From Leisingera methylohalidivorans DSM 14336 (GTDB taxonomy: Bacteria > Pseudomonadota > Alphaproteobacteria > Rhodobacterales > Rhodobacteraceae): a DNA stretch of 64,000 nucleotides. The position numbers were made by a program, and so were the translations under genes. Under the pieces are notes generated by a model. It did not search any database and was not told the DNA's origin. It saw only the letters and a list, made by a program, of their open reading frames with translations. Below, piece by piece: positions 53,763 through 63,423 of this stretch (positions are counted from its first letter, which is position 1; each line of letters starts with the position of its first letter). The stretch lies in contig NC_023135.1 in NCBI RefSeq assembly GCF_000511355.1, forward strand, positions 3,772,838-3,836,837. The letters are read 5' to 3'.

Positions 53763-54578
53763 TTAGACTTTCAGCGTTTCGGTCGAGGAAAAGAACATCG
53801 CTTGGCTCACTGCTGAACGAACCTGTTCTTCAGTATATGGCTTTGAGATAAGGAAGGCCGGTTCCGGCCCCTCGCCGGTTAACAGGCGTTCGGGGTAGGC
53901 CGTGATGAAGATCACCGGGCGATCACCGTGCTTGGCCAGGATATTATTGACAGCGTCGATACCGCTGGAGTTATCTGCCAGCTGGATGTCCGACAGGATC
54001 AAATCGGCCTGGGTCTCGGCTGCCAGCTCCAGTGCGCGGGCTTCGGTTCGGGCAATGCCAGTCACGCTGTGGCCCATTCCAGAAACGATGGCCTCGAGAT
54101 CCATTGAGATGATCGCTTCGTCCTCGATGATCATGATCTGGCCTGAGGTGGCGCGCGACATTTCGTCGTAAGCGATCGAGATCAACTCGGAGGCTTCGCT
54201 TTTGCTTACCCCCATGATGATGCCGGTATCCGCTGCACTGAATTCTTCAATTGTGTGCAGCAAAAGCGCTTCACGGGTGTTCGGAGTAAGCCGCCGCAAA
54301 TGCTTCTGAGCCTTGGCCGCCAGGCTTGTTCCGTCTTCATCTTCTCCGGCGGGTGCGCCGGAAGAGGACCAGATCGCATGAAAGACGCGGAAAAGTGCGA
54401 CTTTGGGGGAAAGCCTGCTGTCATAGTCACTTTCGCCGGAGAGAATGGCCTCCAGCGAAGCCAGCGCATATTTGTCGCCGCTGCTCTGGCTGCCGGTCAG
54501 TGCCCGGGCGTAGCGGCGCAGGTAGGGCAGGGTTGCGCCAATCTGGCTGGCGATCAAGTCTCCCGATTGAGCGGTCAT
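53763..54578 (-). CDS. phyR: PhyR general stress response anti-anti-sigma regulator
   Basis: A 271-residue PhyR protein. The N-terminal half (about 1-140) is a sigma-factor mimic (LPYLRRYARALTGSQSSGDKYALASLEAIL, LRRLTPNTREALLLHTIEEFSAADTGIIMGVSKSEASELISIAYDEM). The C-terminal receiver has E152/D153, phosphorylation site Asp197 in ILSDIQLADNSSG, and Lys246 in LISKPY. On phosphorylation the mimic domain binds NepR and releases EcfG. It is divergent from nepR/ecfG copy 1 with overlapping promoters, the classical arrangement. It is the only phyR in the window although two NepR-EcfG pairs are present. Confidence 0.97.
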   Translation of the reverse strand: MTAQSGDLIASQIGATLPYLRRYARALTGSQSSGDKYALASLEAILSGESDYDSRLSPKVALFRVFHAIWSSSGAPAGEDEDGTSLAAKAQKHLRRLTPNTREALLLHTIEEFSAADTGIIMGVSKSEASELISIAYDEMSRATSGQIMIIEDEAIISMDLEAIVSGMGHSVTGIARTEARALELAAETQADLILSDIQLADNSSGIDAVNNILAKHGDRPVIFITAYPERLLTGEGPEPAFLISKPYTEEQVRSAVSQAMFFSSTETLKV

Positions 54579-54609
54579 TTTGCGTCGTCCCCTTTTTTGC
54601 AATACATAT

Positions 54610-54634
54610 GGAACTATACGCGCTTAAAAGCGTT
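54610..54634 (+). promoter_or_regulatory. EcfG-type promoter of nepR1-ecfG1-kinase-PLD operon
   Basis: GGAAC (54610-54614), 16 nt, CGTT (54631-54634): a perfect consensus, 37 nt before the nepR1 ATG at 54671. This implies positive autoregulation of ecfG. Confidence 0.88.
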
Positions 54635-54641
54635 TGGTTCC
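54617..54641 (-). promoter_or_regulatory. EcfG-type promoter of phyR
   Basis: On the minus strand GGAAC (54641-54637), 16 nt, CGTA (54620-54617); one mismatch. It overlaps the divergent nepR1 promoter almost completely, so polymerase cannot occupy both at once. Confidence 0.7.
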
Positions 54642-54670
54642 AGAAACTGCGCAAAAAACCGATGGATTGC

Positions 54671-54871
54671 ATGACACAGCGACAACGCGCCCGGCCGCGC
54701 AACGAACAGGCCGACCGCGAAATAGACGAAAATCTCAAGCGGGCCTTCGATCAGATTGCGAGCGAGCCTGTGCCCGACCGTTTTACCGATCTGCTGAAGC
54801 GGCTGAAGGAAAAGGAGGCGGGAAAGACCCGCGCCCAGGACCAACCGGAGGAGAACCGCTCCGATGACTGA
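54671..54871 (+). CDS. nepR: NepR anti-sigma factor, copy 1
   Basis: A 66-residue NepR: DENLKRAFDQIASEPVPDRFTDLLKRLKEKE contains the two-helix core with the conserved NLKRAF and EPVPDRF segments that clamp EcfG or PhyR. It binds and blocks EcfG until PhyR~P takes it over. The ATG at 54671 fits (an ATG three codons earlier is possible). It overlaps ecfG1 by 8 nt, so the two are coupled. Confidence 0.95.
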   Translation: MTQRQRARPRNEQADREIDENLKRAFDQIASEPVPDRFTDLLKRLKEKEAGKTRAQDQPEENRSDD

Positions 54872-55421
54872 CCCCGCGCGAGATCCAAGGGAAGACCTGG
54901 TCAATCACTTGGGGGCCCTGCGCGCCTTTGCCCTCAGCCTTGCCCGCAACGGCGCCACTGCCGATGATCTGGTGCAGGATACGCTGGTCAAGGCCTGGAC
55001 CAATATCGACAAGTTCAATCCCGGGTCGAACATGCGGGCCTGGCTGTTCACTATTTTGCGCAATACCTATTACTCTTTGCGCCGCAAGCGCAAGCGCGAG
55101 GTGGAGGATTCGGATGGCGTATTGTCCGGCACCCTGGCGCAAAAGCCCGATCACGACGGGCGGCTGCACATGCGCGATTTCAACGCGGCCTTTGCGCTAT
55201 TGAACGACGAGCAGCGTGAAGCGCTGGTGCTGGTCGGCGCGGGCGGATTCTCCTACGATGAGGCCGCAAAGATGTGCGGCGTGAAAACCGGCACTATCAA
55301 GAGCCGGGTGAACCGCGCCCGTGCCCGACTGGCTGAGCTGATGGAACTGGATGATAACAGCAAGATGGAACTGACTGATACGGTCACGGCTGGGATCGTT
55401 GCTCAGCAAAGCGCCGCATGA
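54864..55421 (+). CDS. ecfG: EcfG-family (ECF15) sigma factor, copy 1
   Basis: A 185-residue ECF sigma factor of the EcfG type. Region 2 has LVNHLGALRAFALSLARN, ADDLVQDTLVKAWTNIDKF and MRAWLFTILRNTYYSLRRKRKREVED; region 4 has LVLVGAGGFSYDEAAKMCGVKTGTIKSRVNRARARL. It directs RNA polymerase to GGAAC-N16/17-CGTT promoters. It overlaps nepR1 and, by 4 nt (ATGA), the downstream kinase. It closely resembles copy 2 at 59941-60489 over its full length. Confidence 0.96.
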   Translation: MTDPARDPREDLVNHLGALRAFALSLARNGATADDLVQDTLVKAWTNIDKFNPGSNMRAWLFTILRNTYYSLRRKRKREVEDSDGVLSGTLAQKPDHDGRLHMRDFNAAFALLNDEQREALVLVGAGGFSYDEAAKMCGVKTGTIKSRVNRARARLAELMELDDNSKMELTDTVTAGIVAQQSAA

Positions 55422-57190
55422 TCAAAATTCCGCGGCTGCAAGCCGGCAGCTTGCTGGTACGTTTGGCTGCGCTGATGACATTTGCGCTGCTGCCGCTGGG
55501 CCTGATCGCTCTGTATCAAACCAACGCTGTAGTTGCGGAAGCCAACCGGCTGTCGCATGCATCATTGCTGGCCCATACCCAGCAGGCCGCTGCCAGGGAG
55601 CGGGAACTGTTGCAGCGGGCCGGCGGCGCCACCGAAGGGCTGGCCGCCGCGATCCTGCCGGTATTCGGCAGTGGCGGAGATTGTGCAGACCTCATGAAAG
55701 CGTTTACGCAGGGGCAAAACCCGTTCACTTTTGCAGCCTTCATCACGCCCGACGGTCAGATGGAATGCACCTCGGACGGCAGCATCGGGGATATTTCCGA
55801 AAAGTGGCTGTTTCTAAAGGCCCAGCAAGCCTCCCGCCTTTCGTTTGCAGCAGGCCAGGGCATATTGGGCAAAGGTGGCCCTCAACTGGTGGCAACCAGC
55901 CCGGTGCAGCGCGACGGTATCCTGCTTGGCTATGTCTCCATCGCGGTCCCGCACCAATTGACCAATTCACTGGCGGGCACAAAATGGGCCGAACAGGGCA
56001 TCCGGTTTGTCACCTTGGACGCGCAAGGGGAGATTCTCTCCGCCAGCGTGCCGCAGGAGCAGGCCGCACAGTCACTTCCGGTTTCGGTACCTCGCCGCGA
56101 ACTGCTGCTCCGCGCCGGCGGCACATTTTTTGAAGATGCGCGGTCCGGCCAAGAGCGTTTCTTTGCGGTCAGTGAAATTCTCCCCGGCCAGGTTGCCGTC
56201 GTCGGCAGTTGGCCGGTGGAAAACGCCATGTCGGTGAGCGCAAGCCCGACCTCATGGATGACGCTGGCATTTCCGGTCCTGATGTGGCTTGCCGGCATTT
56301 CCGTTGCTGTTCTCGGCTTGCAGCAGATGGTGATCCGCCACTTAAGCGCATTGCGCCGGGCAATGCGACGGTATGCGCTGGGAGAGCGGGATGACCCGAA
56401 TCTCAATCTGAAAAGCCCCCCGCGCGAATTCGATGAGGCCCGGCTGTCCTTTAACCGCATGGTGGCAATCCTCAGCGAAGCAGAGAGACGGCGCGAGCTT
56501 GACCTTGATGAAAAGACCATGCTGCTGCGCGAAGTTCATCACCGGGTGAAAAACAACCTCCAGCTTGTGGCGTCCATCATGAACATGCAGGGGCGGAACG
56601 CGCAGACTCCCGAAGCCCGGCGTATGCTGTCACAGCTGCAGCGGCGGGTGCGCGGGCTGGCTACAATCCACCGCAGCCTGAATACCAATCCCGACGTTTC
56701 CACAGTGGACAGCCGCGAACTGATCAACGAACTGATCGCGGAGATCGGTTCGATGAACGCCGGTACCGGACAGGATGTGGTGATCGAAACGGATCTCGCT
56801 CAGGTGCCGCTCAGCCAGGATCAGGGAGTAACCCTGTCAATGCTGGTATCAGAGGCGATGACCAATGCCGTGAAATATATCGGTGTGCCTGAAGGGGGGC
56901 GGCCGGAAATCAAAGTCAGCCTGCGCGAAACAGCCAAGAACTGGCTGGAGCTGGAATTGACCAACACCAAAGGGCAGCCCCTGCTGGATCCGGAGGAGGA
57001 CGTCGGCGGATCTGGAATCGGCGCACGGCTGATGACGGCTTTTGCGACGCAGCTCGACGGAAAAGGCGTCACTCAGGAGACAGAAGACACGTATACGTAC
57101 CGGCTCGGCTTCCCCGCCGTTGCCGGGGCCGCTCCTCCAGAAGCCGATACGCAGGAACAGAAACAAGATGCAACAGAGCCTGCCGCCTGA
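55418..57190 (+). CDS. HisKA_2-type sensor histidine kinase (probable PhyR kinase)
   Basis: A 590-residue membrane sensor kinase. TM1 is about residues 11-33, a periplasmic domain follows to about 280 (with Cys89 and Cys117), TM2 is about 281-302, and a HAMP-like segment leads to the HisKA_2 dimerisation domain with phospho-acceptor His374 in REVHHRVKNNLQ. The kinase domain has LVSEAMTNAVKYI (N box) and GGSGIGARL (G box). It is co-transcribed and overlaps ecfG1, so it is the prime candidate to phosphorylate PhyR. No second kinase accompanies nepR2/ecfG2. Confidence 0.93.
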   Translation: MIKIPRLQAGSLLVRLAALMTFALLPLGLIALYQTNAVVAEANRLSHASLLAHTQQAAARERELLQRAGGATEGLAAAILPVFGSGGDCADLMKAFTQGQNPFTFAAFITPDGQMECTSDGSIGDISEKWLFLKAQQASRLSFAAGQGILGKGGPQLVATSPVQRDGILLGYVSIAVPHQLTNSLAGTKWAEQGIRFVTLDAQGEILSASVPQEQAAQSLPVSVPRRELLLRAGGTFFEDARSGQERFFAVSEILPGQVAVVGSWPVENAMSVSASPTSWMTLAFPVLMWLAGISVAVLGLQQMVIRHLSALRRAMRRYALGERDDPNLNLKSPPREFDEARLSFNRMVAILSEAERRRELDLDEKTMLLREVHHRVKNNLQLVASIMNMQGRNAQTPEARRMLSQLQRRVRGLATIHRSLNTNPDVSTVDSRELINELIAEIGSMNAGTGQDVVIETDLAQVPLSQDQGVTLSMLVSEAMTNAVKYIGVPEGGRPEIKVSLRETAKNWLELELTNTKGQPLLDPEEDVGGSGIGARLMTAFATQLDGKGVTQETEDTYTYRLGFPAVAGAAPPEADTQEQKQDATEPAA

Positions 57191-58655
57191 AGAACACCGC
57201 TGCGGGGAATTCGCAGTGCTGATCACAGCGGAGCAAGCCTGGCCTGCCTTTGAACGCGCGGTGCTGGATGCCCGTCGCGAGATCATTGCCAGCTTCCGCC
57301 TGTTCGATTTCGCCACCCGCCTGCTGAGCCCCGAGGCGCAGAAAACCGGCGGAAACTGGGCCGATCTGATTACGGATGCGCTGCGTCGCGGGGTGCGGGT
57401 CCGCCTGGTTGTAAGCGACTTTGATCCGGTCATGGCAGCGCCCCTGCATGCCGCCGCACAAAAGACCCTTGAGCAGGCGCAAGAGATCGCGGCACAGCTC
57501 AGCCCGGAACAGGTTGCGCTGTTATCAGTCTCCGCCGCGTTGCATCCAGCGCGGGCGGGGCTATTGCCGCGGCTTGCCTTTTCACCCTTTGTTTTGCGCA
57601 AGCTGCGCAAACTCCCCAAGCGATTGCGGCCCGCTGCGGCCAGCCGTCAACGGCTGCCGCAGCTCTGTCCGGTTTCGCAACATCAAAAAATTGCAGTGAT
57701 CGACCGCGAGGTTCTTTATATCGGCGGCCTGGATCTGAACCGGCGCCGCTTTGACACCCAAGCCCATGACCAGCCAGCGCATGAGACCTGGGCTGATGTC
57801 CAATTGATGCTGCGCGGCCCAGAAGCCGAGGAGGCTGCAAGCCATCTGGAGCGGTTCCAGGACGAAACCGCGCTGCGCAGGCGGCCGCCCCAAGGCAAGC
57901 ATATACGCCGCACCCTGTCTGTACCGCGCCGCGGCGGTTTTTGGGCTCTGTCGCCGCGGACTGTTCTGAAGGAAATCGAAGAAGACCACCTTGAGGCCTT
58001 CGGACAGGCGCGGCACCTGATTTACTTGGAAACCCAGTACTTTCGTTCCAGCCCCATAGCCCGCGGGCTGGCCGATGCCGCACGCCGCAACCCGGATTTA
58101 TCACTGATCCTGATCCTTCCGGCACTGCCTGAAGAGGTCGCCTTTAATGAAGACTGCGGGCTGGATGCGCGCTACGGCATGGCGTTGCAGGCTGAAGCGC
58201 TGCAGGAGGTAAGCGCCGCCTTCGGGGGCCGCGCCTGTATTGCCAGCCCGGTGCAGCGGCGCATGGCAGCTCGTGTATCGCCCTCGGTTCTGGCGGGATC
58301 TCCGATGATCTATCTGCACAGCAAGGTTCTGCTTGCCGACCAGAATTTTGCCATGGTGGGCTCGGCCAATCTGAACGGGCGCTCGATGCGATGGGATACT
58401 GAGGCCGCCCTGCGGATCACGCAGCAAGACAGGATCGGGCAGCTGTGGCATGCGCTGGCGCGGCATTGGTGGCAAGAAGACCTTCCGGCCGAAGCACTGG
58501 ACCCGGTCTGTGCAGCCGCATGGTGGCAGCAGGAGATCCGCCGTAACAAGATCCGCCGCCCGGAGGCGCGCCGCGGGCTTCTGGTACCGCATGACCCGGA
58601 CAGGATGGCAGAGCTTCAGCAGCCTTTGCCTGGCGCGACCGAAGACATCGTCTGA
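57168..58655 (+). CDS. Phospholipase D-like protein with two HKD motifs
   Basis: A 495-residue PLD-superfamily protein. Both catalytic motifs are intact: HQKIAVIDREVLYIGGLDLN (about 172-191) and HSKVLLADQNFAMVGSANLN (about 384-403). Relatives hydrolyse phosphatidylcholine or transfer phosphatidyl groups (cardiolipin synthase-like). There is no signal peptide or obvious membrane anchor. The start at 57168 lies inside the 3' end of the kinase gene (23-nt overlap), so the enzyme belongs to the GSR operon. A role in membrane remodelling during stress is inferred. Confidence 0.9.
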   Translation: MQQSLPPEEHRCGEFAVLITAEQAWPAFERAVLDARREIIASFRLFDFATRLLSPEAQKTGGNWADLITDALRRGVRVRLVVSDFDPVMAAPLHAAAQKTLEQAQEIAAQLSPEQVALLSVSAALHPARAGLLPRLAFSPFVLRKLRKLPKRLRPAAASRQRLPQLCPVSQHQKIAVIDREVLYIGGLDLNRRRFDTQAHDQPAHETWADVQLMLRGPEAEEAASHLERFQDETALRRRPPQGKHIRRTLSVPRRGGFWALSPRTVLKEIEEDHLEAFGQARHLIYLETQYFRSSPIARGLADAARRNPDLSLILILPALPEEVAFNEDCGLDARYGMALQAEALQEVSAAFGGRACIASPVQRRMAARVSPSVLAGSPMIYLHSKVLLADQNFAMVGSANLNGRSMRWDTEAALRITQQDRIGQLWHALARHWWQEDLPAEALDPVCAAAWWQQEIRRNKIRRPEARRGLLVPHDPDRMAELQQPLPGATEDIV

Positions 58656-58700
58656 GCCGTTGGCAGCGCGCGTTGCCTGGCATGTCAACGCAGGCGGCGC

Positions 58701-58732
58701 AAAAGGCCCGGCGCTGTTAAAACGCCGGGCCT
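58701..58732 (-). terminator. Terminator of the secreted-protein/entericidin operon
   Basis: AGGCCCGGCG (58704-58713) and CGCCGGGCCT (58723-58732) form a 10-bp stem; on the minus strand it is followed by TTTT. Confidence 0.8.
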
Positions 58733-58758
58733 ATGTGCAGCTGCGACGCAGCAAAGCG

Positions 58759-58884
58759 TTACTGGGCTTCCTGGGACTCTTCAGTGATTTCATTACCAAG
58801 ATTCGACACGTCCCTGCCGAAGCCTTCGGTTGTTTCACAAGCTGCCAGGCCGGCCAGTGCGAAAATTGCGAGAAAGATACGCAT
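58759..58884 (-). CDS. Entericidin A/B family lipoprotein
   Basis: A 41-residue lipoprotein with sequence MRIFLAIFALAGLAAC then ETTEGFGRDVSNLGNEITEES. The LAAC lipobox and the GxGxDVxxLGxxI core are typical of entericidins (EcnA/EcnB), small lipoproteins of a putative toxin-antidote pair that in several bacteria are controlled by general stress sigma factors. It is 10 nt downstream of the 162-residue secreted protein gene, so both share the EcfG-type promoter at 59432-59457. No second entericidin is adjacent. Confidence 0.9.
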   Translation of the reverse strand: MRIFLAIFALAGLAACETTEGFGRDVSNLGNEITEESQEAQ

Positions 58885-58894
58885 TATGGTCTCC

Positions 58895-59383
58895 TTACTT
58901 CAGTTTCGACGCAATGTTGCCTGCGAAGGCATCGATGACGGCGGTGTAGAACATTTCGCTGTCAACGGTGGCGGTGGCAGGGTCAGTGCCTTCGGGGTAA
59001 TAGGCACTCAGCTGGTCCGCAGAGACAGTCAGGTCATAACGCATATCCTTGGACGCGTCAGGCATATCGATGTCCACATCGCCTTTCAGCATCCATTCTC
59101 CAACGCCCAGCGCCTGTTCGAAATTGCTGGCCAGCATAACAGAATCGATCTCGACATGAATCTCTGCCGCTTCACCCGCGTCTTTACCCGCAATTTGGCC
59201 GGCAAGGCGCTCGGCCAGGGCAGTTTCCAAATCGGTTTCAAGGCTGGTCCAAACCGCAGCCGCCGGGTAATTCTCGATCGCGCTCAGATCGGCCGTCACG
59301 TCGATTTCGGAGACTTTAGAGCCAGCAACAGCGGCCGTCGCAATCGCCGTCACCAGAGCAGTGGTGCGGATCAGATGAGTCAT
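58895..59383 (-). CDS. Secreted hypothetical protein in EcfG-controlled operon
   Basis: A 162-residue protein with a signal peptide (cleavage near TAAVAG/SKV), one domain of alternating beta/alpha character and no Cys. Segments are VSEIDVTADLSAIENY, WTSLETDLETALAERLAGQIAG, AAEIHVEIDSVMLASNF, then a Ca2+-loop-like acidic stretch. I cannot assign a family. It heads a two-gene unit with entericidin, preceded by an EcfG-type promoter, so it is likely induced in the general stress response. Confidence 0.8.
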   Translation of the reverse strand: MTHLIRTTALVTAIATAAVAGSKVSEIDVTADLSAIENYPAAAVWTSLETDLETALAERLAGQIAGKDAGEAAEIHVEIDSVMLASNFEQALGVGEWMLKGDVDIDMPDASKDMRYDLTVSADQLSAYYPEGTDPATATVDSEMFYTAVIDAFAGNIASKLK

Positions 59384-59431
59384 GTTTGAATGCTCCTTCT
59401 ATTTCTGCCCCTGTTGGGGATGCAGCATAGA

Positions 59432-59457
59432 AACGCCCGGGTTTCTCGAAAGGTTCC
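59432..59457 (-). promoter_or_regulatory. EcfG-type promoter of secreted protein/entericidin operon
   Basis: On the minus strand GGAAC (59457-59453), 17 nt, CGTT (59435-59432): perfect boxes with the longer allowed spacing. The -10 ends 49 nt before the start at 59383. Confidence 0.8.
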
Positions 59458-59720
59458 TGAATTTATTGGAGATACCTGCAGCAGATCAGTTGCTCATTTA
59501 TTTTCTTCCTTAGAACATCAAGCTGAGTGCAGCTGCCCGCGCTAGGGTACGAACACGCGCTTCCACGCGCGCCATGCAACTGCGCATTCAAAATCGGGGC
59601 ACGGTATCCTCTGGGCAAAGGGCTCGGACACGGGCGAGACATTGGACCTCAACTTGCAGAGTGGCATCCGCGGAGATTGAAGGGGGGGGGCATCCCACAA
59701 CGGTTACGAGGGCTCCGGCT

Positions 59721-59745
59721 GGAACCATTCCCATCTTCACGCGTT
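59721..59745 (+). promoter_or_regulatory. EcfG-type promoter of nepR2-ecfG2
   Basis: GGAAC (59721-59725), 16 nt, CGTT (59742-59745): perfect consensus, 32 nt before the nepR2 ATG. Confidence 0.88.
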
Positions 59746-59776
59746 AGCCTCTGGTGAGCGTTGAGCAGAGGGAAGA

Positions 59777-59944
59777 ATGTCAAAGCTAGAACACAACCAT
59801 CAAGCGCGCCTAACCGCGGATCAAATTGACCGCAACTTGAAGAGAGCCTTTCAGGAGCTGGCCACGGAACCGCTGCCGGACCGGTTCACCGTTCTGCTTG
59901 ACCAGTTGCGTAAGGCTGACCTTCAAAAGAAGGACATGCAATGA
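59777..59944 (+). CDS. nepR: NepR anti-sigma factor, copy 2
   Basis: A 55-residue second NepR: DQIDRNLKRAFQELATEPLPDRFTVLLDQLRKAD, with the same NLKRAF and EPLPDRF core as copy 1 but shorter N- and C-terminal tails. It should bind EcfG2 and perhaps EcfG1. GAGGGAAG precedes the ATG at 59777. It overlaps ecfG2 by 4 nt (ATGA). Easily missed because it is so short. Confidence 0.93.
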   Translation: MSKLEHNHQARLTADQIDRNLKRAFQELATEPLPDRFTVLLDQLRKADLQKKDMQ

Positions 59945-60489
59945 CCGCTGACCCACGCGAAGAGTTGACCGAGCATCTTGGTGCGCTGCGCGCCTTTGCG
60001 CTCAGCCTTACCCGGAATTCCGCAGCCGCGGATGACTTGGTGCAGGATACGCTGATCAAGGCCTGGACCAATATCGAAAAGTTTAAACCAGGCTCCAACA
60101 TGCGGGCTTGGCTCTTCACCATTCTGCGCAACACTTTCTATTCGCTGCGCCGCAAGCGCAAGCGTGAGGTCGAAGATGCTGACGGTTCACTGGCTTTGGC
60201 ACTGGCCTCCAAACCCGATCACGACGGCCGACTGAATATGCGCGACTTCATGCAAGCCTTCGACCAGCTGCCGGACAGCCAGCGAGAGGCGTTGACCCTG
60301 GTGGGTGCGGGGGGGTTTTCGTATGAAGAAGCCGCCGAAACTTGCGGTGTCGCGGTCGGCACGATCAAAAGCCGCGTTGGGCGCGCCCGCGCTGCGCTGG
60401 TGCATCTACTGCATCTGAAAGATGGTGAAACGCTGGAGCTGACTGACAGTGTAACGGCCGGAATTCTATCCAACCATCCTGCGGCCTGA
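59941..60489 (+). CDS. ecfG: EcfG-family sigma factor, copy 2
   Basis: A 182-residue EcfG paralogue. It shares long identical runs with copy 1 (HLGALRAFALSL, ADDLVQDTL, PGSNMRAWLFTILRNT, SLRRKRKREVED, LVGAGGFSYEEAA), differing mainly in the region between sigma2 and sigma4 and at the C-terminus. The near-identical DNA-contacting parts predict the same promoter specificity. It is coupled to nepR2; no kinase or phyR follows. No terminator is seen directly after it, the first one being at 60786-60825. Confidence 0.95.
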   Translation: MTADPREELTEHLGALRAFALSLTRNSAAADDLVQDTLIKAWTNIEKFKPGSNMRAWLFTILRNTFYSLRRKRKREVEDADGSLALALASKPDHDGRLNMRDFMQAFDQLPDSQREALTLVGAGGFSYEEAAETCGVAVGTIKSRVGRARAALVHLLHLKDGETLELTDSVTAGILSNHPAA

Positions 60490-60944: not shown

Positions 60945-61193
60945 ATGAAAGCCCCGATTATCTTTGCCGCAGTCGCTGGCATCCTTGTGCTGGTTTTTGG
61001 TATCTACATGATTGACGTCGACCAGACCCAGGAGACCCGTCTCCCTGATGTGGATGTCTCCGTCGAAGGCGGTCAGCTGCCGGAATTCAACGCCGAGGTT
61101 GGCGACATCGAAGCCGGCACTGAGGAAGTAACCGTGACCGTCCCCACCATCGATATCCAAAGCCCTGAAGAAGACGCTAACAACGACGGCTAA
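60945..61193 (+). CDS. Small acidic membrane-anchored hypothetical protein
   Basis: An 82-residue protein with one N-terminal hydrophobic helix (residues 4-23, IIFAAVAGILVLVFGIYMI) and a strongly acidic, Val/Glu/Asp-rich tail of about 60 residues that should face the periplasm or the cytoplasm. I do not recognise a family. GAAAGGACAG precedes the ATG, a leader much like that of the DUF1328 copy 1 gene. It has its own terminator, so it is a single-gene EcfG target candidate. Confidence 0.82.
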   Translation: MKAPIIFAAVAGILVLVFGIYMIDVDQTQETRLPDVDVSVEGGQLPEFNAEVGDIEAGTEEVTVTVPTIDIQSPEEDANNDG

Positions 61194-61530: not shown

Positions 61531-61555
61531 GGAACCATTCTCCCGCTCAACCGTT
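61531..61555 (+). promoter_or_regulatory. EcfG-type promoter of DUF1328 copy 2
   Basis: GGAAC (61531-61535), 16 nt, CGTT (61552-61555): perfect consensus, 53 nt before the ATG at 61608. Confidence 0.88.
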
Positions 61556-61607: not shown

Positions 61608-61769
61608 ATGCTTGGTTGGGCAATCACGTTTCTTATTGTGGCACTCGTCGCCGCAGTTCTTGGATTCAGCGGCATCGCAGGCGCTTCCGCTGGGATCGCA
61701 CAGATCCTCTTTGTGATTTTCCTCGCACTTTTCGTTCTCTCGATCGTTGTCCGCCTCTTCAAAGGCTGA
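61608..61769 (+). CDS. DUF1328 family small membrane protein, copy 2
   Basis: A 53-residue two-helix membrane protein, clearly paralogous to the one at 53505 (both have GIAxASAGIAxILFxIFLALF). It lies at the opposite end of the island and has a perfect EcfG promoter. AAGGAAAAG precedes the ATG. The next gene starts 55 nt later with no terminator between, so they may be co-transcribed. Confidence 0.88.
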
Positions 61770-62226: not shown

Positions 62227-62251
62227 GGAACAATCTTCCTAGGCCCGCGTT
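62227..62251 (+). promoter_or_regulatory. EcfG-type promoter of PLDc_N gene
   Basis: GGAAC (62227-62231), 16 nt, CGTT (62248-62251): perfect consensus, 36 nt before the ATG. Confidence 0.88.
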
Positions 62252-62286: not shown

Positions 62287-62472
62287 ATGGAATATGGAAT
62301 TATTGGCCTGCTCGTACTGGCTGCAGATATCTACGCAATCATTCAAATCCTGTCCTCGGGTGCCTCCACCGCTGCCAAGATCGTGTGGACACTCGTTATT
62401 CTCATTCTGCCAGTACTGGGCTTCATCATCTGGTTGATCGCAGGTCCCAAATCCTCTGCTGCAAACATTTGA
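62287..62472 (+). CDS. PLDc_N (phospholipase D nuclease N-terminal)-type small membrane protein
   Basis: A 61-residue protein of two hydrophobic helices with IVWTLVILILPVLGFIIWLIAGP, the PLDc_N signature found at the N-terminus of cardiolipin synthases and as stand-alone small proteins. It contains no catalytic domain. It is an EcfG-type monocistron, bounded by a promoter and a terminator. Confidence 0.88.
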   Translation: MEYGIIGLLVLAADIYAIIQILSSGASTAAKIVWTLVILILPVLGFIIWLIAGPKSSAANI

Positions 62473-62561: not shown

Positions 62562-62597
62562 TCCCCATTGAACACTGATAACAAGGAGGCAGATGAT

Positions 62598-63035
62598 ATG
62601 ACCGTTCCGTCTGATTTGGAAACGCAGGCCCGTGCCCAAGCTGCCGATCTGAGCCGCAAGGCCAAAGTCGCAGTTGCGGACAAAGTCCGCGACACTGCTG
62701 ATGCTGCGCAGTCGCAGGCCGCCCGCGAAGTGCAATCAACAGCCGATGCTGTTGGCGCCGCGGCCGAAGCATTTGAACCAGGCACCATGCAAGCGCAGGC
62801 CGCACAGGTCGTTGCCGGCCACCTTGAGGACGCCGCCCACCGGGTTCGTGCCTTGGATGTCGAACAAAGCTTGCGGGATGTCAGCGCCTTTGCGCGCCGC
62901 AACCCGCTGCTGTTTCTCGGCGGTGCCGCACTGGCCGGATTTGCCGCCACCCGTTTCCTCAAAGCAAGCGAACAGGGCAGCCTTGACACCGACCGCACAC
63001 AAATGACCCGGGAGGCCGGTTATGGCACGTCATGA
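62598..63035 (+). CDS. YqjD-like helical membrane-anchored protein
   Basis: A 145-residue protein: about 95 Ala/Gln/Asp-rich helical residues followed by a C-terminal anchor ([22 protein letters not shown]) and a short polar tail. The [14 protein letters not shown] anchor is typical of YqjD/DUF883-like proteins. It is the first gene of an operon with a holin-III-like protein and a DUF3618 protein. AAGGAGG sits just upstream of the ATG at 62598. It overlaps the next gene by 14 nt. Confidence 0.85.
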   Translation: MTVPSDLETQARAQAADLSRKAKVAVADKVRDTADAAQSQAAREVQSTADAVGAAAEAFEPGTMQAQAAQVVAGHLEDAAHRVRALDVEQSLRDVSAFARRNPLLFLGGAALAGFAATRFLKASEQGSLDTDRTQMTREAGYGTS

Positions 63036-63423
63036 TCTGCGCCAAGTGCCAGAATTGTTCTCGGAAGCTCTCCAGCATTTCGCAGCGTTGCTGCGCAGTG
63101 AAGCAGAGCTTGCCAAGAGTGAGCTTAAGGAGAACGCCGCCCGCGCCGGAACCGGGCTAACCTGTTTCGCCATCGCCGCGCTAATGGCGCTGGCAGGCAT
63201 GCATGTTCTGGCGGCGGCGCTGGTCGCCTGGATTGCATCCTCGGGCCTGTCGGCCGGGTGGGCCGCGCTGATCGTCGGCGGCGGGCTGATGGCGGTTGCA
63301 ATGGGCCTGGTATTGGCCGGCAAATCGCGGCTTAGCAGCAAGGCGCTTTTGCCAAACCGCACCATCCGCAGTGTCAAGCAGGATGCCGCAAGCATCAGGG
63401 AGGCCGCAAATGCCCGCTACTGA
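63022..63423 (+). CDS. Phage-holin-III-like (YqjE-type) membrane protein
   Basis: A 133-residue protein with a charged N-terminal helix (LFSEALQHFAALLRSEAELAKSELKENAAR) and two transmembrane segments (about 44-71 and 76-99). This layout matches the putative actinobacteriophage holin III / YqjE family, here part of a stress operon and not of a phage. It overlaps both neighbours by 14 nt. Confidence 0.86.
   Translation: MARHDLRQVPELFSEALQHFAALLRSEAELAKSELKENAARAGTGLTCFAIAALMALAGMHVLAAALVAWIASSGLSAGWAALIVGGGLMAVAMGLVLAGKSRLSSKALLPNRTIRSVKQDAASIREAANARY

What the first reader, a model, noticed from the sequence alone, without database searches (positions are those of the whole stretch)
54610..60489. 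Two complete NepR-EcfG modules under a single PhyR
Seen: nepR1-ecfG1-kinase-PLD (54671-58655) and a second coupled nepR2-ecfG2 pair (59777-60489), each behind a perfect EcfG-type promoter, with only one phyR (53763-54578) and one kinase. EcfG1 and EcfG2 share long identical runs in both DNA-binding regions but differ in the linker and C-terminus; the two NepR proteins differ more. Known: the alphaproteobacterial GSR runs PhyR-NepR-EcfG, and some genomes carry several EcfG paralogues, often unlinked. Inference: one input feeds two output pairs in tandem, so NepR/EcfG cross-binding could set threshold, amplitude or shut-off of the response. The flanking DUF1328 paralogues suggest a local segmental duplication.
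Basis: partly seen in the sequence, partly recalled or inferred. Interest (0 to 1): 0.8.

Follow-up and report, generated by a model that had tools for sequence, protein, structure and literature searches.

The report
Two ancient stress-sigma pairs, one switch
A marine bacterium carries two sigma-factor/anti-sigma pairs of its general stress response side by side under a single activator; the pairs are not a recent local copy but two long-separated lineages that mostly run alone in the relatives examined, so one PhyR probably now controls both.

Summary
Two overlapping nepR-ecfG pairs lie 5 kb apart, each behind a perfect GGAAC-N16-CGTT promoter. The whole genome has two NepR, two close EcfG and one PhyR. 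'One kinase' is true of the window only: the genome has a second, weaker HisKA_2 match.

A local duplication inside the genus is rejected. EcfG1 belongs with the other Leisingera (genus inferred from contig matches). EcfG2 belongs with the EcfG of Cognatishimia, a Ruegeria, one Roseovarius and Mameliella (AU p = 0.00045). In the six such genomes searched whole it is the only close EcfG, beside PhyR.

The region is a fused locus: phyR1-nepR1-ecfG1-kinase-PLD and a 162-aa gene, then nepR2-ecfG2, then an island of small membrane/stress genes. In two relatives that island follows a complete phyR2-nepR2-ecfG2 locus. No second PhyR or trace of one was found.

nepR2-ecfG2 occurs in 5 of 21 genus genomes (one beside a decayed block). 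ecfG2 is as constrained as ecfG1.

Best mechanism (inferred): PhyR1 relieves both NepRs, releasing two sigmas of nearly the same promoter specificity. Extra NepR and EcfG copies are known in alphaproteobacteria, so this is a new variant of a known kind.

The parts
53763..54578 (-). phyR1, the only PhyR found in the genome
   Evidence: NF006623 346.8 bits (cut-off 240), PF22029, PF22233, PF00072; single hit in G000
54610..54634 (+). EcfG-type promoter of nepR1, GGAAC-N16-CGTT
54617..54641 (-). overlapping divergent near-consensus EcfG site toward phyR1 (GGAAC-N16-CGTA, one mismatch)
   Evidence: read from the sequence
54671..54871 (+). nepR1
   Evidence: PF18557 57.8 bits
54864..55421 (+). ecfG1, type 1
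   Evidence: NF009198 310.8 bits, cut-off 270; tree with all Leisingera EcfG1
55418..57190 (+). HisKA_2/HWE sensor kinase, PhyK-like
   Evidence: PF07568 78.1 bits, PF07536 32.6 bits; NF051872 PhyK 173.8 bits, below its cut-off of 750
57168..58655 (+). phospholipase D / cardiolipin synthase-like protein
   Evidence: PF13091, PF00614
58895..59383 (-). 162-aa protein with a signal-peptide-like start (by eye), right-hand end of the type-1 block
   Evidence: no Pfam match; found next to the type-1 block in 17 of 18 Leisingera type-1 loci, the exception being the decayed G020b
59432..59457 (-). GGAAC-N17-CGTT upstream of the 162-aa gene
   Evidence: same place in 8 of 8 other Leisingera loci scanned that hold the gene
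59721..59745 (+). EcfG-type promoter of nepR2
   Evidence: kept in G017, G013, G020 (N16) and G007 (N17)
59777..59944 (+). nepR2
   Evidence: PF18557 51.6 bits; type-2 motif IDRNL
59941..60489 (+). ecfG2, type 2
   Evidence: NF009198 306.4 bits; clade with Cognatishimia, Ruegeria, Roseovarius, Mameliella EcfG; dN/dS 0.018-0.097
60945..61193 (+). 82-aa protein, first gene of the island; also downstream of the Cognatishimia and Ruegeria type-2 loci
   Evidence: no Pfam match
61531..61555 (+). EcfG-type promoter before DUF1328b
61608..61769 (+). DUF1328b, island copy
   Evidence: PF07043 58.9 bits
61825..62106 (+). YqjD/ElaB-like small protein (name recalled, no Pfam match)
62227..62251 (+). EcfG-type promoter before the PLDc_N gene
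62287..62472 (+). PLDc_N small membrane protein
   Evidence: PF13396
62537..62561 (+). EcfG-type promoter of the operon that starts at 62568/62598
62598..63035 (+). conserved island protein, no Pfam match
63022..63423 (+). holin-X superfamily III protein
   Evidence: PF07332 93 bits

Best explanation
This is a fused general-stress-response locus. A type-1 GSR block (phyR1, nepR1, ecfG1, kinase, PLD, 162-aa gene) sits directly in front of a type-2 nepR2-ecfG2 pair and an island of small membrane/stress genes, at the place where phyR2 stands in Cognatishimia and in R. pomeroyi SZCCDBG043. The two pairs are long-diverged lineages brought together by rearrangement and loss, not local duplicates. 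Proposed mechanism: without stress, NepR1 and NepR2 hold EcfG1 and EcfG2, with cross-binding likely. Under stress the kinase drives phosphorylation of PhyR1, which binds both NepRs and frees both sigmas. Both sigmas are expected to read GGAAC-N16/17-CGTT, to switch on both nepR-ecfG operons (positive feedback, with NepR made again as a brake) and to drive the flanking genes. Shown here: gene content and stoichiometry, promoters, phylogeny, synteny, purifying selection. Inferred: every protein-protein contact, PhyR1 acting on NepR2, and the shared regulon.
For: Genome has 2 close EcfG, 2 NepR, 1 PhyR. Deep separation of EcfG1 and EcfG2. EcfG2-type is the only close EcfG in 6 of 6 type-2 genomes searched (G413-G418; G414 also has a 40%-identical hit), with PhyR beside it in 6 of 6. 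phyR2-nepR2-ecfG2-island order in Cognatishimia SS12 and R. pomeroyi SZCCDBG043. No phyR2 trace in the gap before nepR2 in 4 of 4 genomes tested. Distance to Cognatishimia/Ruegeria over distance within carriers is 2.00 for ecfG2, against 1.66-2.58 for 8 of 9 island genes (PLDc_N 5.04), so ecfG2 shares the island's history. Type-1 copies next to nepR2-ecfG2 form one clade, 1B (100/98). ecfG2 dN/dS 0.018-0.097 (10 pairs), ecfG1 0.030-0.118 (20 of 21 pairs, one undefined). Recognition segments of EcfG1 and EcfG2 nearly identical by eye. nepR2 promoter kept in 4 of 4 other carriers.
Against: No interaction or expression data. NepR2 of this genome is evolving fast (9-12 of 35 core residues differ from other Leisingera NepR2, against 2-3 for NepR1), so its role may be weakening or changing. 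The island tree puts G007 with EcfG2-negative species (97/92), while the 1B block tree puts it with the carriers: recombination blurs the history. DUF1328b of the carriers is closer to Cognatishimia/Ruegeria (mean distance 0.185) than to the one EcfG2-negative island copy found (0.426, G006), which fits a transfer of the nepR2-ecfG2 end of the island unless that copy is a paralogue. nepR2 has a lower distance ratio (1.56) than ecfG2. All 5 carriers are in one genus, and in G020 the adjoining type-1 block is decayed.
Confidence: 0.64

Rival explanations
1. Local segmental duplication of nepR-ecfG, with the DUF1328 genes as its edges.
For: Linkage, 74% EcfG identity, DUF1328 copies on both sides.
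Against: AU test p = 0.00045. Self-comparison finds only ecfG and 77 bp of DUF1328. EcfG1 is no closer to EcfG2 (74%) than to the single EcfG of six type-2 genomes (71-77%).
Confidence: 0.04
2. Recent horizontal gain of nepR2-ecfG2 (perhaps with the nearest island genes) from a Cognatishimia/Ruegeria-like donor, inserted by recombination at the already homologous island.
For: Only 5 of 21 genus genomes carry ecfG2. The type-2 clade crosses several genera. DUF1328b of the carriers is closer to those genera than to the one EcfG2-negative island copy.
Against: ecfG2 divergence to Cognatishimia/Ruegeria scales with that of the island genes (ratio 2.00, island median 2.02); a recent gain should give a lower ratio. 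The shared order extends through MscS in Cognatishimia, about 6 kb downstream of ecfG2.
Confidence: 0.28
3. The second pair is not a parallel output. NepR2 serves mainly as a stress-induced PhyR decoy (negative feedback), as proposed for a NepR homologue of Methylobacterium extorquens, and EcfG2 gives only mild amplification. (This concerns function and can hold with either origin.)
For: NepR2 core is accelerated in this genome, including a valine at a position that is D or E in 19 of the 20 other cores printed outside Leisingera NepR1 (S in Phaeobacter italicus). nepR2 has its own EcfG promoter. Precedent in PMC4814048 (passages).
Against: ecfG2 is as constrained as ecfG1. nepR2 overlaps ecfG2 in 5 of 5 carriers.
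Confidence: 0.2

Closest known systems
Methylobacterium extorquens AM1 GSR (PMC4814048; abstract and passages seen)
   Same: Several EcfG, and extra NepR-like proteins that bind PhyR.
   Different: There the two extra NepR homologues that bind PhyR were not found to bind any EcfG, and the paper attributes EcfG paralogues of different species to separate duplications. Here each EcfG keeps its own coupled NepR and the second pair is a different lineage.
Sphingopyxis granuli TFA, two EcfG and two NepR (PMC7083833; passages seen)
   Same: Two EcfG, two NepR, a GGAAC-N16-CGTT promoter, nepR-ecfG overlap.
   Different: TFA has two PhyR; one EcfG has a coupled NepR, the other lies divergently without one, is expressed constitutively and controls the first; the other nepR lies elsewhere beside a phyR.
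Rubellimicrobium thermophilum GSR and GSR' (PMC12148442; passages seen)
   Same: Two sets of GSR genes in one genome, EcfG and PhyR duplicated.
   Different: Two PhyR and a single NepR, at separate loci: the opposite shortage to this window.
Rhizobium etli EcfG1/EcfG2 (PMC3892343; passages seen) and Caulobacter SigT/SigU (as summarised in PMC4814048)
   Same: Primary plus secondary EcfG.
   Different: R. etli's second EcfG is plasmid-borne. SigU does not interact with NepR. A second coupled NepR is not mentioned in the passages seen.

Membership tests
EcfG (ECF15) sigma factor | Sigma-70 region 2 and region 4, curated EcfG-like model over cut-off | tested here: met
   Both: PF04542, PF08281; NF009198 310.8 and 306.4 bits against cut-off 270. 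That NF009198 stands for EcfG is my reading; its title is only 'RNA polymerase sigma factor'.
EcfG (ECF15) sigma factor | Coupled to nepR and behind a GGAAC-N16/17-CGTT promoter | tested here: met
   Overlapping nepR-ecfG in both pairs; promoters at 54610 and 59721
NepR anti-sigma factor | PF18557 core over gathering score | tested here: met
   57.8 and 51.6 bits, cut-off 25.7
NepR anti-sigma factor | NCBIfam equivalog NF051865 (anti-sigma T factor NepR) over its cut-off of 100 | tested here: not met
   27.2 and 20.8 bits. This is a narrower equivalog model; the proteins are claimed as NepR family by Pfam, not as this equivalog.
NepR anti-sigma factor | Binds EcfG and phosphorylated PhyR | not testable with these tools
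   No interaction assay
PhyR anti-anti-sigma factor | Sigma-like domains plus receiver domain, subfamily model over cut-off | tested here: met
   PF22029, PF22233, PF00072; NF006623 346.8 bits
PhyK equivalog (NF051872) | Score over cut-off 750 | tested here: not met
   173.8 bits over nearly the full length: a PhyK-like HisKA_2/HWE kinase, not the equivalog
Local tandem duplicate | The two EcfG of this genus form one clade | tested here: not met
   p-AU 0.00045
Orphan secondary EcfG (SigU type) | Second EcfG without its own coupled NepR | tested here: not met
   nepR2 overlaps ecfG2 in the window and in 4 of 4 other carriers

The most novel reading that the evidence does not exclude
Two GSR partner-switch lineages, one of which is carried singly by all six type-2 genomes searched here, have been stacked into one heritable locus in a set of Leisingera. 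One lineage's PhyR was lost, and the surviving PhyR has captured the orphaned NepR-EcfG pair. One phospho-signal then drives two anciently diverged sigma switches, and NepR2 is being re-tuned to its new activator (fast core evolution in this genome).
Probability: 0.45. Interest if true: 0.6.

Novelty: new variant of a known kind. Interest (0 to 1): 0.46.

Why it matters
The roles of extra GSR copies are called largely elusive in PMC4814048 (abstract), and PMC12148442 could not read partner choice between two PhyR paralogues from their sequences (passage). Here nature has done a swap: a NepR-EcfG pair whose own PhyR is missing lives with another lineage's PhyR, while close relatives keep the single systems. 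That gives matched pairs for binding and deletion tests, and it suggests that a second EcfG module can arise by joining two lineages rather than by copying one.

Tried and rejected
Local duplication: rejected by tree and AU test, and unsupported by self-BLAST and synteny. A phyR2 remnant between the 162-aa gene and nepR2: none (blastx against the session's PhyR proteins, best E 1.4); G017, G013 and G007 instead hold an mgtC-family gene there, not found in the window. Plasmid origin: 46 plasmid records hold an EcfG relative at E <= 1e-30, best identity 71% (Dinoroseobacter shibae), and none holds 80% of the nepR2-ecfG2 DNA. A kinase-NepR2 fusion in G020: the open frame reads through, but the nepR2 promoter, leader and start codon are intact inside it, so I treat it as a by-product of a deletion. 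Convergence of the window's NepR2 on NepR1: by eye only 2 of the changed core residues match NepR1, not convincing. Gene conversion between EcfG1 and EcfG2 of the window: no excess similarity (74% between them; 71-77% from EcfG1 to six type-2 EcfG). Literature: no paper holds Leisingera + sigma factor + general stress response; NepR + Roseobacter gave two off-topic listings; EcfG + horizontal gene transfer + anti-sigma factor gave three listings, not on this; the broader listings showed no such locus by title or abstract start. That is the whole basis for saying I found no report of it. No structure prediction was run: the tool folds single chains, and the open question is about complexes.

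Limits of counts: in the family searches only the top candidates of each genome were scored (up to 8 for EcfG; 19 for NepR; 6 for PhyR), so copy numbers there are lower bounds, and I tallied them by hand from the printed rows. Before the EcfG tree of 110 rows I dropped loci L001-L032, L113-L115, eight named duplicates of genus genomes and identical rows; the 52-row tree is a selection from it by name. One row (L147) was mis-parsed and L146 was not printed; one search gives both NepR1 (G010, G002). ORF calls are mechanical and noisy outside the named genes. EcfG2-negative islands lie on draft contigs, one (G005) cut by a contig end.
Full report
Setting. The window is a 64 kb piece of a 4.65 Mb genome (G000, 3 contigs). 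That naming is an inference.

Observation. PhyR (53763-54578, minus strand) diverges from nepR1-ecfG1-kinase-PLD. A second nepR2-ecfG2 pair starts at 59777. All pass family models: PhyR NF006623 346.8 bits, EcfG NF009198 310.8 and 306.4 bits, NepR PF18557 57.8 and 51.6 bits. EcfG1 and EcfG2 are 74% identical and nearly identical in the region 2 and region 4 recognition segments; the NepRs are 44% identical. Across the genome there are two close EcfG (the next ECFs are 26% identical), two NepR and one PhyR. The single kinase holds only for the window: a second HisKA_2 match over the cut-off lies elsewhere.

Promoters. GGAAC-N16-CGTT occurs five times in 64 kb, against 0.40 expected from shuffles, none of which reached five. 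The five precede nepR1, nepR2, DUF1328b, a PLDc_N gene and an operon starting at 62568/62598. An N17 version precedes the 162-aa gene; N17 hits in the window (2) are near chance, but this one is kept in 8 of 8 other Leisingera loci scanned that hold the gene. The nepR2 promoter is kept in the four other carriers. An overlapping minus-strand site with one mismatch faces phyR (read). GGAAC-N16-17-C/GGTT is the consensus given in PMC12148442 (passage).

Origin of the two pairs. Of 21 genus genomes, 17 have a type-1 EcfG and 5 of these (G000, G007, G013, G017, G020) also have an EcfG at least 90% identical to EcfG2; 4 have neither. In a 52-row tree, EcfG1 of the window groups with all Leisingera EcfG1 (100/99). 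EcfG2 groups with the four other Leisingera EcfG2 (97/87), then Cognatishimia SS12 and Ruegeria pomeroyi SZCCDBG043 (96/84), then Roseovarius aestuariivivens and a metagenome bin (95/85), then Mameliella, Antarctobacter/G402, G339 and G193 (93/92). Forcing all Leisingera EcfG1 and EcfG2 into one clade costs 40.6 log units (p-AU 0.00045). EcfG1 is 74% identical to EcfG2 and 71-77% identical to the EcfG of six type-2 genomes. In those six (Cognatishimia SS12, R. pomeroyi SZCCDBG043, R. aestuariivivens, bin.31, Antarctobacter, Mameliella alba) the type-2 EcfG is the only close EcfG (the Ruegeria also has a 40%-identical hit), and PhyR lies beside it in all six; in a seventh, G193, PhyR is about 5 kb away on the same strand. 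The window's PhyR belongs with the Leisingera type-1 PhyRs. NepR cores agree: 9 of 9 type-2 NepR printed have IDRNL, Leisingera NepR2 have IDRNL (4) or IDRSL (G007), and 18 of 18 Leisingera NepR1 copies have IDENL.

Anatomy of the locus. Against the 20 kb around the type-1 locus of an EcfG2-negative Leisingera (G010), the window (34000 to 10 kb past its end) aligns from 53765 to 59459, i.e. phyR1 to just past the 162-aa gene; the only other pieces of 120 bp or more are an ecfG cross-hit and 155 bp at DUF1328. Against Cognatishimia SS12 it aligns from nepR2-ecfG2 through p82 and DUF1328b to a mechanosensitive-channel gene beyond the window (59815-66420, with gaps). In Cognatishimia and R. pomeroyi SZCCDBG043 the order is phyR2, nepR2-ecfG2, a 1.9 kb stretch, p82, DUF1328b, YqjD-like, PLDc_N, conserved protein, holin-X, DUF3618-like, AI-2E transporter and, in Cognatishimia only, MscS. 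Of the 12 EcfG2-negative, type-1-positive Leisingera I fetched an island locus for 11: parts of the island are present in 11 of 11, on another contig than the type-1 block or (G018) 0.9 Mb from it, and without nepR2-ecfG2 (G016 was not fetched; most of these assemblies are drafts). So in the window the type-1 block stands where phyR2 would be. No phyR2 trace was found in that gap in G000, G017, G013 or G007.

History. The mean distance of the carriers to Cognatishimia/Ruegeria divided by their own mean distance is 2.00 for ecfG2; for the nine island genes it is 1.66 to 2.58 in eight, and 5.04 for PLDc_N; for nepR2 1.56. This fits ecfG2 having the island's history better than a recent solo transfer. 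Against it, DUF1328b of the carriers is nearer to Cognatishimia/Ruegeria (0.185) than to the one EcfG2-negative island copy found (0.426), whereas the other eight island genes are on average nearer to EcfG2-negative Leisingera. The type-1 blocks that stand next to nepR2-ecfG2 form their own clade (1B; 100/98) apart from the stand-alone copies (1A). G020 has both: 1A at one place and a decayed 1B (kinase shortened, PLD and 162-aa gene not found) joined to nepR2-ecfG2 at another (G020b fills 46% of the columns). G020's two ecfG1 genes are nearly identical (dS 0.046) although the blocks differ, which suggests gene conversion. The island tree places G007 with EcfG2-negative species (97/92). My reading is that the fused unit arose once, that 1A was lost in four of the five carriers, and that recombination has since moved parts. 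The alternative, a transfer of nepR2-ecfG2 into the island, keeps a probability of 0.28.

Function. ecfG2 is constrained like ecfG1 (dN/dS 0.018-0.097 against 0.030-0.118); nepR2 is looser (0.18-0.57). In the window's genome the NepR2 core differs from other Leisingera NepR2 at 9-12 of 35 sites, the NepR1 core at 2-3 of 35, at similar dS where dS could be estimated. Between G017 and G007 the two are alike (2 and 3); G020's NepR2 is also somewhat fast (6-8 differences to G017, G013, G007). The second pair therefore looks maintained, but its anti-sigma is changing in this lineage. From the established PhyR-NepR-EcfG partner switch, the likeliest reading is that PhyR1 relieves both NepRs and both sigmas drive largely one regulon. 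Contacts and expression were not testable.

How unusual. In 394 family genomes (close to one per genus), NepR is present in two or more copies in 21; two or more NepR with two or more EcfG and one PhyR in 9 of 394 (G000, G042, G057, G155, G237, G240, G304, G344, G377). Two coupled nepR-ecfG pairs are present in 4 of 394 (G000, G042 (which has a third EcfG without NepR), G237, G377; only the nine genomes just named were looked at for this), and the two pairs lie within 10 kb in 2 of 394 (G000; G237, about 7 kb apart on opposite strands). Copy numbers are lower bounds and some genomes are incomplete (G042 85%, G240 75%, G344 70%). About half of the family sample has no EcfG at E <= 1e-30 (205 of 394).

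Known work. Multiple EcfG are common, and extra NepR copies are described in Methylobacterium extorquens, Sinorhizobium meliloti and Sphingopyxis granuli (PMC4814048, PMC7083833, abstract and passages). In M. extorquens two NepR homologues bind PhyR but were not found to bind any EcfG, and a negative-feedback role was proposed for one. In S. meliloti both NepRs bind the sigma factor and both PhyRs. In Rubellimicrobium thermophilum there are two PhyR and two EcfG but one NepR (PMC12148442, passages). PMC4814048 explains EcfG paralogues of different species by separate duplications; the stacking of two lineages with loss of one PhyR is the new element here. I found no report of it in the searches named in Tried and rejected.

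Noticed in passing
Genus genomes G003, G008, G009, G012: In these four near-complete genomes of the genus (99-100%) no PhyR, NepR or close EcfG was found: the GSR core seems to be missing.
   Followed up: partly
L143 7883-11492 (G020): A decayed copy: the type-1 kinase is shortened, PLD and the 162-aa gene were not found, and the kinase frame runs open into nepR2, whose own promoter and start are intact.
   Followed up: partly
L141 13392-13886, L142 5905-6399, L145 5926-6588: An MgtC-family gene (PF02308, tested on the L141 copy) with an upstream GGAAC-N16-CGTT site in G017 and G013 lies between the 162-aa gene and nepR2 in three carriers; not found in the window.
   Followed up: partly
59777-59944: NepR2 of this genome has diverged unusually fast in its core compared with NepR1 and with NepR2 of relatives, including a valine in the FTVLL stretch.
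   Followed up: partly
G006 contig C21:397-1182: A second, 49% identical PhyR near a contig end in an EcfG2-negative Leisingera.
   Followed up: no
G000:C1:3196226-3196381: A second HisKA_2 match elsewhere in the genome, possibly another input to PhyR.
   Followed up: no
G237 C3:302715-310625: Another family member with two nepR-ecfG pairs about 7 kb apart and one PhyR found, on opposite strands: a second case worth comparing.
   Followed up: partly
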